DNA from: an uncultured Acidimicrobiia bacterium
Lineage (GTDB): Bacteria > Actinomycetota > Acidimicrobiia > Spongiisociales > Spongiisociaceae
DNA length: 64,000 nt
NCBI GenBank assembly: GCA_958295745.1
Contig: OY282370.1
Span: 310,001-374,000, forward strand
Reading direction: 5' to 3'
Shown here in pieces: positions 9,918 to 61,395 of this stretch. The notes below the pieces were generated by a model. That model did not search any database. It worked only from the letters and a program-made list of their open reading frames with translations, and had not been told where the DNA came from. Position numbers and translations under genes: made by a program. The stretch's first letter is position 1. Each line of letters begins with the position of its first letter.

Positions 9918-10235
9918 GGAGAGCGCGAAAGAAAGGGGTTGACCTTTCCCCGGAAATGGGAGATGCTGTTGGGGTAGGAAAGAATCCGCCGCGTTGGTCC
10001 GGACGGCGGCGGAGAATGTCGGAAGCCTCGTCCGATGTCCGGCCTTCCGCGGAGGGTAACGGAACTAGGGCGAGCAGTGGCCGAAGCCGATGAGAAACTT
10101 CGGATCGGGGCCGGGTCAACGCGCCCGCACCCCCGGTTTGGCGCAGTGCGGCGGTGGCGGGGTGGGTAGCCCAACGGGCGGCGGTGGGTTGGGCAGGGTT
10201 TTCGCGATCTACCGGCGCCGGTTCGCACGGCCGGC
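9918..10235 (-). repeat. Dispersed repeat, uninterrupted copy A
   Basis: The reverse complement of this segment matches 58149-58224 followed directly by 59716-59970. Long shared blocks include GCCACCGCCGCACTGCGCC, GGCCGGACATCGGACGA, CCGTCCGGACCAACGCGGCG and CAGCATCTCCCATTT. Identity is roughly 80 percent by eye, and indels are not multiples of three, so the conservation is not coding. It fills most of the 626-bp gap between the divergent genes at 9739 and 10366, in which no convincing gene is seen. Its function is unknown. Confidence 0.9.
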
Positions 10236-58148: not shown

Positions 58149-58224
58149 GCCGGCCAGACCAGCCGCAGGTGAACAGCCAGCGGCAGACCGCGAAAACCCC
58201 GCCCGACCTCCGCCGCCCGTTGGG
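58149..58224 (+). repeat. Dispersed repeat copy B, left part (interrupted)
   Basis: CGCGAAAACCCCGCCCGACC and CCGCCGCCCGTTGGG match the reverse complement of copy A up to base 58224, where similarity breaks at the left end of the IS110 element. The remainder resumes at 59716. The sequence between pstS and this point (57847-58148) holds the Pho box and nothing else recognisable. Confidence 0.85.
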
Positions 58225-58234
58225 ATCCCCTTAC

Positions 58235-58472
58235 CGTGTTCTGGTATGTCCCCGTGGGATGATTCGGGGATGGTTGCCCGTTCACGGCGGGTAGGGCTTC
58301 GGGTTCCTGTCAGATGGATGACTTGGGGTGTGGTGCCGCCCGCCGTGTTGGGTGTGGTTGACCTCTAACAGGAACATGCTCCCAGGTTCTGGGGCTTTGT
58401 AAGGTGGTTGACGGCAGCTGCGCCCTGTGGGCGGGTGACCTGTGGAAAAGCTGATTTCGTCGGAAGGAGACG
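58235..58472 (+). ncRNA. Candidate bridge RNA region of the IS110 element
   Basis: Non-coding sequence between the left end and the transposase. ACAGGAACA at 58368-58376 is identical to the right end (59698-59706). GTAAGG at 58399-58404 is complementary to CCTTAC at the left end (58229-58234). Between them a hairpin (CCCAG 58381-58385 with CTGGG 58389-58393) could cap an internal loop. That is the order reported for a donor-binding loop. A further hairpin CGCCC/GGGCG is at 58421-58433. Exact RNA ends are unknown. Confidence 0.45.
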
Positions 58473-59690
58473 ATGATGGATCCCACAGGGATCGGGGTGT
58501 TCGTGGGTGTGGACGTAGCCAAAGAAGAACATTTCTGCCAGGCGATAGGCGCTGAGGGAGCTGGGCTGTTCGCCCGGGCGGTGGGCAACAACGAAGCCGA
58601 CCTGGAAGGAATGATCGACCAGGCCGAGGGGTCGGGGCGGGTGGTGCTGGTGGTCGACACCACCAGCTCGGGTGCTCATCTGCTGCTGGCGGCGGCAGCC
58701 CGCCGGCGGATACCCGTGGCGTATGTGACCGGTCTCCAGATGCGCCGAGCGGCGGAACTGTACGCAGGAGTAGCCAAGACCGACCCCCGAGACGCGTTCG
58801 TGTTGGCGGACTTCGCCCGCCGCAACGCCGATCGTCTGGCTTGGGTAACGATCACCGACGAGGTACTGACCCGGATGCGGGTCCTGTCGGGCCACGACGA
58901 AGACCTAGCAGCCGACTCTACCCGGACGATCAACCGCCTCCGGGACGCGATGGTGTCTGTATCCCCTGGTCTGGAGCGTGTTCTGGGTTCCAAACTAGCC
59001 CAGAGGGGCGTCCGTGAGCTGCTGGTACGCTGGCCTACCCCAACTGCCATGCGAGCAGCGGGCAAGACACGAATACGAAACTTGTTGAAAAAGTATTATT
59101 CCAACAAGCCGCACAAAGCCGTCGAGCTGACAGACCGGATCTGGGTAGCGCTCGGAGCTCAGACCATCACCCTGGCGGGCGAAGCCACCTGGGGAGAGGT
59201 CATCACCAAAAAGGTAGACGCCCTCGAGCGTATCACAGCCGAACGGAAAGAACTCACCGCGGCCATCGAGGAAGTGTTCCCATCCCACCCTTTAGCCGAG
59301 ATACTGATCTCCGTACCAGGGATCGGCGTCCGGACCGGCGCCCGCATCCTGACCGAGGTCGGTGACCCCCACCGGTTCGCCAACGGATCCCGCCTAGCGT
59401 CCTACGCCGGCCTCGCCCCGACCATCCGCCGATCCGGCCGAACCCAAAACACCACCCGCCGCCACCCCGGCGGGAACCACCGACTCAAAAACGCCATGTA
59501 CTGGACCGCGTTCTCAGCCTCCCGATACGACCCAGCCGCCCGCGTCTACTACCAACGCAAACGAACCGAAGGCAAATCCCACACCACCGCCCTCCTCTGC
59601 GTCGCCCGCCGCCGATGCGACCTCATACTCGCCGTACTCAAAAACCAAACCCTCTACAACCCACCCGAACCAGCCCCCGAACCCGTTTGA
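58473..59690 (+). CDS. IS110-family transposase (DEDD plus Transposase_20)
   Basis: 405 residues, apparently intact, with GGAAGGAG before the ATG. The RuvC-like part has GVFVGVDVAKEEHF (first Asp near 13), VVDTTSSGAHLLLAAAARR and KTDPRDAFVLADFAR near 103-117. The C-terminal Transposase_20 domain has ILISVPGIGVRTGARILTEV and LASYAGLAPTIRRSGRTQNT, where the SG motif is the likely serine nucleophile region. IS110 recombinases use a bridge RNA to pair donor and target DNA. It is inserted in a repeat, not in a gene. Confidence 0.93.
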   Translation: MMDPTGIGVFVGVDVAKEEHFCQAIGAEGAGLFARAVGNNEADLEGMIDQAEGSGRVVLVVDTTSSGAHLLLAAAARRRIPVAYVTGLQMRRAAELYAGVAKTDPRDAFVLADFARRNADRLAWVTITDEVLTRMRVLSGHDEDLAADSTRTINRLRDAMVSVSPGLERVLGSKLAQRGVRELLVRWPTPTAMRAAGKTRIRNLLKKYYSNKPHKAVELTDRIWVALGAQTITLAGEATWGEVITKKVDALERITAERKELTAAIEEVFPSHPLAEILISVPGIGVRTGARILTEVGDPHRFANGSRLASYAGLAPTIRRSGRTQNTTRRHPGGNHRLKNAMYWTAFSASRYDPAARVYYQRKRTEGKSHTTALLCVARRRCDLILAVLKNQTLYNPPEPAPEPV

Positions 59691-59715
59691 CAAACCGACA
59701 GGAACACACCCCCGC

Positions 59716-60060: not shown

Positions 60061-61395
60061 TTGACCGACTCGTTGCGCAACGACCGCCGCACCATCTTCG
60101 GCTGGGCCATGTACGACTGGGCCAACTCGGCTTTCATCACGACGCAGGGCGCCATCATCGCCCCCTTCTTCACAGGGACCATCGTCCCCGAGGGGGGATG
60201 GAACGGATGGTCGGGCGAGACCATCTGGGCGGGGGTGGTGTCGATCGGGTCGGTGGTTCTCTTCGTGATGATGCCGGTGCTCGGAGCGGTGGCCGACTAC
60301 GCGGCGGCCAAGCGCCGGTTCCTCCGCAACTTCATGATGTTGGGCGCCCTCTTCGCGCTGGTGATGCCCTTCATACCCGACGGGGCGGTCCCGTTGTTCC
60401 TGGTCATAGCGCTTACCGCCAACTTCGGGTTCGTGGCCGCCAACGTCTTCTACGACGCCTTCCTGCCCCAGCTCACCGACGACGATACGGTCGACCGGGT
60501 TTCGTCCAGGGGCTACGCCTTCGGCTACGTGGGCGGGGGTTTCTACCTGGCCTTGTCGCTGGTGCTGCTCCTGTTGAGCGGCGAGGACAGCCTTACCGGA
60601 CTATCCACCTCCACCGCCGCCCGGGCGGCCATATTCGGCTCCGGAATCTGGTGGTTGGGTTTCTCCCGGCTCGCACTGCGCCGCCTGCCCGAAACCGGGG
60701 AGGCCGCCCCCCTCCCGGCCCGGTTCCGCCGCCTTCGACCGTTCCAAGCGTACGCCGCCGCCGGCTTCAGCAGGAACTTCGCCACTTTGCGGAAGCTTCG
60801 CAGGTTCCCCCATCTCCTGATGTTCCTGCTCGCCTACTTCTTCTACAACGACGGCACCCAGACGGTGATCAGCCTGTCCGGCTCCTACGCCGAGGATACT
60901 CTGGAACTCGACCTCACCTCCATCGCCCTCGCCTTCCTCGTGGTCCAGTTCGTGGCCTTCGGAGGGGCTTTGTTCTTCGGGATGGTGGCGCAGCGGCTCG
61001 GGACCAAGCGTTCCATCCTCTGGACGCTCCTGGTCTGGTCGATGATCGCCGTGGCCGCCTACTTCCTTCCGGTCGGACAGTCACTCCCCTTCCTGGGGCT
61101 GGCGATGGTGGTCGGTTGGGTGCTCGGCGGGGTGCAGGCCCTGAGCCGTAGCCTCTACGCCACCATGATCCCCGAGGAGTCGCCCGCCGAGTTCTTCGGG
61201 TTCTACACCATATTCTCCCGGTTCTCCACGATCCTCGGGCCGTTGGTGTTCGCGGTGGTGAGCGCCACTACGGGATCGGGCCGCCCGGCCGTCCTCTCTA
61301 TCGTGGTCTTCTTCGTGGTGGGCGGCCTGCTGCTCACGCGGGTCAACGTGGACGAGGGGCGCGCCTCCCGGTCTGCCTGGTCAACGGATCCTTAG
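60061..61395 (+). CDS. MFS transporter, UMF1/Atg22-like family
   Basis: 444 residues from TTG at 60061; the ribosome-binding site is weak. Twelve hydrophobic segments are present. The start GWAMYDWANSAFITTQGAIIAPFF (positions about 14-37; key GW..YDWANSA) and GVQALSRSLYATMIPEE near 360 are diagnostic for the UMF1 group. Its bacterial substrates are unknown; the yeast relative exports amino acids from the vacuole. It lies directly downstream of the repeat/IS region and leads a short plus-strand operon. Confidence 0.87.
   Translation: MTDSLRNDRRTIFGWAMYDWANSAFITTQGAIIAPFFTGTIVPEGGWNGWSGETIWAGVVSIGSVVLFVMMPVLGAVADYAAAKRRFLRNFMMLGALFALVMPFIPDGAVPLFLVIALTANFGFVAANVFYDAFLPQLTDDDTVDRVSSRGYAFGYVGGGFYLALSLVLLLLSGEDSLTGLSTSTAARAAIFGSGIWWLGFSRLALRRLPETGEAAPLPARFRRLRPFQAYAAAGFSRNFATLRKLRRFPHLLMFLLAYFFYNDGTQTVISLSGSYAEDTLELDLTSIALAFLVVQFVAFGGALFFGMVAQRLGTKRSILWTLLVWSMIAVAAYFLPVGQSLPFLGLAMVVGWVLGGVQALSRSLYATMIPEESPAEFFGFYTIFSRFSTILGPLVFAVVSATTGSGRPAVLSIVVFFVVGGLLLTRVNVDEGRASRSAWSTDP

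What the first reader, a model, noticed from the sequence alone, without database searches (positions are those of the whole stretch)
58235..58472. Readable donor loop of a candidate bridge RNA
In the non-coding end, ACAGGAACA (58368-58376) equals the right end of the element, and GTAAGG (58399-58404) is complementary to the left end CCTTAC. A GC-rich hairpin (58378-58395) sits between them. This is the layout described for the IS621 donor-binding loop (left guide, apical stem, right guide). The match was found without assuming it, and the ends come independently from the empty-site comparison.
Basis: partly seen in the sequence, partly recalled or inferred. Interest (0 to 1): 0.7.

Follow-up and report, generated by a model that had tools for sequence, protein, structure and literature searches.

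The report
Bridge RNA of an IS110 element
The stretch in front of this jumping gene encodes a guide RNA of the known "bridge RNA" kind: its four short guide segments match both the element's own ends and the place where it is inserted, and relatives show these pairings changing together, so this is a clear but not unprecedented example of RNA-guided DNA insertion.

Summary
An IS110-family recombinase gene (58473-59690) is preceded by a ~200-nt structured RNA locus.
- Donor loop: left guide ACAGGAACA (58368-58376) equals the right end (59698-59706); right guide GUAAGGUG (58399-58406) is complementary over 8 nt to the circular RE-LE junction CAC|CTTAC.
RTG pairs 5/5 with the target; LTG matches 6/9 plus one wobble.
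- Same-genome copies fix the ends at 58230 and 59707. In five copies with both ends, RTG base U/A/C matches target base A/T/G.
- Across relatives, own guides fit own ends and targets better than swapped ones (z about 6-11); guide and DNA change together on ten tree branches.
- The RNA fold covaries. A TTGACA-17-TACCGT promoter forms only in the circle.
It belongs to the known IS110 bridge RNA kind, in a clade with two twists: the second core base is C where IS621 has T, and the second catalytic acid is D where IS621 has E. RNA expression and activity are untested.

The parts
58230..59707 (+). the whole IS110-group insertion sequence (1478 bp); core base C at 58229 (target side) and 59707 (donor side)
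   Evidence: all copies in the genome are alike from CTTACCG on the left and up to ACAGGAACAC on the right and differ outside; uninterrupted copies of the target repeat
58473..59690 (+). IS110-family recombinase, 405 aa; putative active site D14, D62, D104, D107, S321
   Evidence: PF01548 126.7 bits and PF02371 80.6 bits; IS621 8wt6 E=1.6e-16, ISCro4 9t56; residues by alignment to IS621 and spacing
59687..59692 (+). TTGACA, -35 half of the circle-junction promoter in the right end (overlaps the stop codon)
   Evidence: 17 bp from TACCGT when the ends are joined; conserved in most relatives at 17-18 bp
58232..58237 (+). TACCGT, -10 half of the circle-junction promoter in the left end
58248..58440 (+). 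candidate bridge RNA body (5' end inferred from the -10 position, 3' end inferred from the closing stem)
   Evidence: MFE -97.6 for 58244-58440, z -4.2 against 200 dinucleotide shuffles; consensus structure with covariation
58248..58271 (+). 5' stem-loop
   Evidence: fold; helix 1, 90% of cells paired
58283..58347 (+). target-binding loop with its stem (58283-58291 with 58339-58347; 58295-58297 with 58335-58337)
   Evidence: helix 2: 7 of 10 pairs with changes on both sides, 95% of cells paired
58300..58308 (+). left target guide CGGGUUCCU; target here is TGGGATCC|C (58221-58229)
   Evidence: LTG-target swap test z 6.2 over 45 insertions
58309..58322 (+). apical hairpin of the target-binding loop (GUCA...UGAC)
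   Evidence: helix 4, 97% of cells paired
58325..58330 (+). right target guide GGGGU-G; pairs with C|ACCCC (59707-59712)
   Evidence: variable base U/A/C matches target base A/T/G in five copies; z 7.7 over 45 insertions
58350..58425 (+). donor-binding loop with its stem (58350-58365 with about 58408-58425)
   Evidence: consensus fold of 14 relatives
58368..58376 (+). left donor guide ACAGGAACA, identical to the right end 59698-59706
58378..58395 (+). apical hairpin of the donor-binding loop
   Evidence: 13 nt longer in copy L002
58399..58406 (+). right donor guide GUAAGGUG, pairs with CAC|CTTAC of the circular junction
59698..59707 (+). left donor (element right end) ACAGGAACA plus core C
58221..58229 (+). 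left half of the target site, in a dispersed repeat
59708..59712 (+). right half of the target site, ACCCC
10029..10206 (-). uninterrupted copy of the target repeat in the same window

Best explanation
58230-59707 is an IS110-group insertion sequence whose left end encodes a bridge RNA. Step 1 (inferred): the recombinase excises the element as a circle; the RE-LE junction brings TTGACA (right end) 17 bp from TACCGT (left end), giving a promoter that exists only in the circle and drives the RNA through about 58248-58440 and then the recombinase gene. Step 2 (guide-DNA pairing shown by comparison, binding inferred): the donor loop recognises the circle junction, LDG 58368-58376 reading the right end on the bottom strand and RDG 58399-58406 reading the left end on the top strand; the target loop recognises the genomic site, LTG 58300-58308 on its left and RTG 58325-58330 on its right. 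Step 3 (junction products shown, chemistry inferred): top strands are exchanged 3' of the core base; in copy L003 the left junction keeps the target's T and the right junction the donor's C, as the IS621 mechanism predicts. The target is a variable position in a dispersed genomic repeat, and sister copies carry guides altered to match their own variants of it.
For: Exact sequences. IS110 domains and IS621 homology. Same-genome copies fix the ends. Empty repeat copies: L105 reads GGGCCCT|GCCCCCGCC, the site into which L003 and the outer copy at L004 are inserted, with an 8-nt LTG match and a 5-nt RTG match. In one genome RTG base T/A/C goes with target A/T/G; permutation p=0.0005 over 8 distinct pairs. 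All four guides beat swapped controls: LDG z 10.7, RDG z 9.2, LTG z 6.2, RTG z 7.7. On the protein tree, guide and DNA change on the same branch ten times at RD1, RD2, RD5 and core position 8, each time to a complementary base. Stem covariation: 95.2% of cells paired, 37 cells with both sides changed vs 12.7 in shuffles, 0/500. Junction promoter spacing of 17-18 bp conserved.
Against: No transcript or activity data. The LTG of this copy has two mismatches to its site (A/U and T/C). The inner copy at L004 and copy L005 sit at sites that match their LTG poorly. LTG covariation inside the close group is weak (p=0.01; z 2.9), since most targets there are C-rich. Swap tests do not remove all effects of common descent. 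No Rfam family matches.
Confidence: 0.95

Rival explanations
1. The matches are DNA-level repeats of the ends (for example recombinase binding sites), not RNA guides.
For: Direct repeats of an element's end inside the element can be protein-binding sites; nothing here measures RNA.
Against: The right guide is an inverted complement and the left guide a direct copy, exactly the asymmetry required for an RNA reading opposite strands; the stems around them covary as RNA; target guides match foreign DNA that is not part of the element.
Confidence: 0.03
2. It is a real bridge RNA locus but this particular copy is a relic: guides no longer fit well and the element no longer moves.
For: LTG has two mismatches to its own site; other copies in the genome are truncated (L006) and decayed guides occur in relatives (L058, L063, L064).
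Against: The open frame is intact and the acidic residues and serine are present; both donor guides and RTG fit perfectly; three sister copies (L003-L005) give the same match score and share their ends and RNA, which suggests recent movement of the family.
Confidence: 0.25
3. The non-coding end is an ordinary long 5' leader regulating recombinase translation, with chance resemblance to a donor loop.
For: The RNA directly precedes the recombinase gene and is stably folded.
Against: Guide-end and guide-target covariation across the phylum cannot be explained by leader regulation.
Confidence: 0.01

Closest known systems
IS621 and its bridge RNA (IS110 group; Durrant et al. 2024, PMC11208160; Hiraizumi et al. 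2024, PMC11208158)
   Same: RNA in the left end upstream of the recombinase; 5' stem-loop, target loop, donor loop; four guides with the same strand logic; core shared by both pairings; promoter reconstituted at the circle junction; target in a dispersed repeat; exchange 3' of the core.
   Different: Second core base is C in the right ends parsed here (AC, TC, GC) instead of the nearly invariant T of IS621; the acid at the place of E60 is D in all 40 clade sequences compared; a G-UGG motif follows each right guide in the close group; protein similarity is detected mainly in the C-terminal domain (E=1.6e-16).
ISCro4 recombinase (PDB 9t56)
   Same: second-best solved relative by sequence (E=3.8e-15), an IS110-family recombinase
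   Different: distant; its RNA was not compared here
seekRNA of IS1111/IS110 elements (Siddiquee et al. 2024, PMC11187229)
   Same: non-coding-region RNA that selects the target; circle junction forms a promoter
   Different: IS1111 elements carry the RNA downstream of the gene and have subterminal inverted repeats; here it is upstream and no such repeats were found

Membership tests
IS110 family, IS110 group | recombinase with PF01548 and PF02371 domains, about 300-460 aa | tested here: met
   405 aa, 126.7 and 80.6 bits
IS110 family, IS110 group | acidic tetrad (DEDD) plus C-terminal serine | tested here: met
   D14, D62, D104, D107 and S321: four acids and the serine are present, but the second acid is D, not E; three distant IS110s read here keep E
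IS110 family, IS110 group | long left end, short right end, RNA in the left end | tested here: met
   243 nt before the gene, 17 nt after it
bridge RNA | donor loop whose two guides pair with the two ends of the element | tested here: met
bridge RNA | target loop whose two guides pair with the insertion site | tested here: met
   LTG match partial in this copy
bridge RNA | conserved folded RNA with compensatory changes | tested here: met
bridge RNA | promoter formed at the RE-LE junction | tested here: met
   by sequence only, TTGACA-17-TACCGT; activity not measured
bridge RNA | RNA is transcribed and bound by the recombinase | not testable with these tools
   needs RNA-seq and a binding assay
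IS621-type core | CT core with nearly invariant T at its second position | tested here: not met
   right-end core base is C throughout; the target base is C, or T in L003, the outer copy at L004 and L058
IS1111 group | subterminal inverted repeats of 7-17 bp and RNA downstream of the gene | tested here: not met
   no such repeat between the ends; RNA upstream
Rfam families | match to any of 4227 models | tested here: not met
   no hit at gathering score over the window, nor at E<=1 for 58200-58500

The most novel reading that the evidence does not exclude
An actinomycete-wide clade of IS110 elements forms a distinct functional variant of bridge recombinase: a core with C in place of T at its second position, an Asp in place of the essential Glu of IS621, and target guides that are re-edited naturally within one genome to follow variants of a dispersed repeat.
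Probability: 0.5. Interest if true: 0.5.

Novelty: new member of a known kind. Interest (0 to 1): 0.38.

Why it matters
Bridge RNAs are the basis of a new class of programmable recombinases, and few have been read out completely from sequence. This locus and about 40 relatives give element ends, all four guides, target sites and, in this genome, empty sites, so the pairing rules can be tested by comparison. The clade has another core base and another catalytic acid, which helps to ask which parts of the IS621 mechanism are general, and it offers candidate recombinases of different specificity. Three target-guide variants among five copies in one genome point to natural retargeting.

Tried and rejected
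- IMG/VR scan with the recombinase alignment found no relatives.
- Rfam gave nothing.
- A first permutation test on six distinct RDG/RD pairs, which included decayed copies, was not significant (p=0.13); it was replaced by tests on the wider set.
- I first took the core as the CT of CTTACC, by analogy with IS621. Rejected: it would put the target guide out of register, and the empty site L105 together with the L003 junctions places the exchanged base just before CTTACC.
- That the C-run after the right end belongs to the element: rejected, because copies followed by ACCCC, TCCCC, GCCCC and TCTCT (L042) exist with right target guides that follow the change.
- The inner L004 copy as an RNA-guided insertion at a donor-like site: not supported, because the junction lies 6 nt past the copy of the guide and the target guides fit poorly.

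Full report
Check of the observation. The recombinase is a 405-residue IS110-family protein (PF01548 126.7 bits, PF02371 80.6 bits) whose best solved relatives are IS621 (E=1.6e-16) and ISCro4.

Ends of the element. The genome holds five full copies and a truncated one, plus an outer partial left end beside L004. Aligned, they agree from CTTACCG on the left to ACAGGAACAC on the right and differ outside. The flanks belong to a dispersed repeat with about a dozen copies, one of them uninterrupted in this window at 10029-10206. Empty copies read GGGCTACCC|ACCCC, GGGTCGCCC|TCCCC and GGGCCCT|GCCCC. The last is exactly the joined site of copy L003 and of the outer copy at L004. At L003 the left junction keeps the target base T and the right junction the donor base C. 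That is what exchange 3' of the core predicts (IS621 cleaves the top strands downstream of the core, PMC11208158).

Donor guides. LDG equals the right end over 9 nt. RDG pairs with the left end, and its complementarity continues across the junction of the circle: GUAAGGUG pairs with CAC|CTTAC. About 25 relatives from Acidimicrobiia and about 25 more loci across the phylum keep the layout. Where the left end changes, RDG changes with it: 34 of 41 distinct RNAs are perfectly complementary over five bases, in nine pair types (the table was written by hand). On the protein tree, guide and DNA change on the same branch four times at RD1, once at RD2, three times at RD5 and twice at core position 8, each time to a complementary base. 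Own-versus-swapped tests give z=9.2 for RDG and 10.7 for LDG. For the phylum-wide set the right ends were located by motifs written after reading the ends, without reference to the guides; and swap tests do not remove common descent, which is why the tree count was added.

Target guides. The other loop has LTG 58300-58308 and RTG 58325-58330. In the five copies of this genome that have both ends, the variable RTG base is U, A, C, C, C and the first target base is A, T, G, G, G. Over 8 distinct pairs the RTG-target fit is 36/40 against 28.1 when swapped, p=0.0005. Over 45 insertions LTG gives z=6.2 and RTG z=7.7. In one actinomycete group where nearly every element has a different site, LTG gives z=5.0 and RTG z=4.2, with matches such as UGCAAACCUC (10 nt, L162) and the RTG of L148 with ACTGG. 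In the close group LTG is weaker (z=2.9), because most targets there are C-rich. In the window copy LTG fits 6/9 plus a wobble, and RTG 5/5.

Structure. The RNA folds better than its shuffles (z=-4.2). Four helices taken from the consensus fold have 95.2% of cells paired, against 84.8% in shuffles and at most 60.5% in slid versions, with 37 double changes against 12.7. The structure was derived from the same alignment, which favours it on the first measure. The donor-loop stem also shows compensatory changes.

Expression. TTGACA (59687-59692) and TACCGT (58232-58237) are 17 bp apart only in the circle. Most relatives keep a TTGAC-like and a TA...T element at 17-18 bp; L055, L041 and L161 do not show the -35. 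This agrees with the junction promoter described for IS621 and for ISEc21 (PMC11208160, PMC11187229). No transcript data are available.

Mechanism. Steps read from sequence: pairing of four guides, core position, junction products, structure. Steps inferred: transcription from the circle, assembly with the recombinase, cleavage chemistry.

What is different. The right ends carry C at the second core position, with A, T or G before it, and the partner base in RDG follows. IS621 and its orthologues have a nearly invariant T there (PMC11208158). The residue at the place of IS621 E60, whose mutation abolishes IS621 activity (PMC11208158), is Asp in all 40 clade sequences compared (the spacing to the KTD motif, 42 residues, equals that in IS621), whereas three distant IS110s keep Glu. 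Whether this changes activity is unknown, and I could not check whether other curated IS110 elements share either feature.

Verdict. Supported: a new member of the IS110 bridge RNA kind, in a clade with its own core and active-site variant. Durrant et al. already predicted bridge RNAs for 85.7% of ISfinder IS110s, so the existence of this RNA would not surprise a specialist; the complete reading of guides, ends, targets and empty sites in one genome is the useful part.

Noticed in passing
L004:1108-1262 (G000:C1 about 1110030-1110190): A partial copy of the same IS (left end through LDG plus TGCTCC) directly precedes a complete copy, and the right flank is the first copy's target half. It looks like an insertion into the element's own donor loop followed by loss of one copy, but the guides do not fit that site.
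   Followed up: partly
window:10029-10206 and loci L105-L122: Dispersed non-coding repeat of at least 150 bp with about a dozen copies in the genome, used as the landing site by several of the IS copies.
   Followed up: partly
L002:1240-1480: The donor-loop hairpin of this copy is 13 nt longer than in its sisters while both donor guides are unchanged, so the hairpin seems to tolerate insertions.
   Followed up: no
L006: Copy with an intact RNA and its own altered target guide (GGGUUGCCU for site GGGCTGCCC) but with only about 110 residues of the recombinase recognisable and no right end found.
   Followed up: no
L058, L063, L064: Relatives with a decayed right donor guide (CAGAT/CTGAT) that no longer fits their left end TTTAC; their recombinase genes are broken or incomplete in the loci.
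   Followed up: partly
window:58656-58658 (codon of D62) and relatives: The second acid of the DEDD tetrad is Asp in this whole clade, Glu in the distant IS110s read.
   Followed up: partly
L144-L156, L162: An actinomycete group of IS110 elements whose target guides nearly all differ and fit their own sites, a good natural data set for pairing rules.
   Followed up: partly
window:54294-57846 (-) and 60061-61395 (+): The IS lies between what look like phosphate-transport genes (substrate-binding protein and permeases, by reading the translations) and a membrane transporter gene.
   Followed up: no
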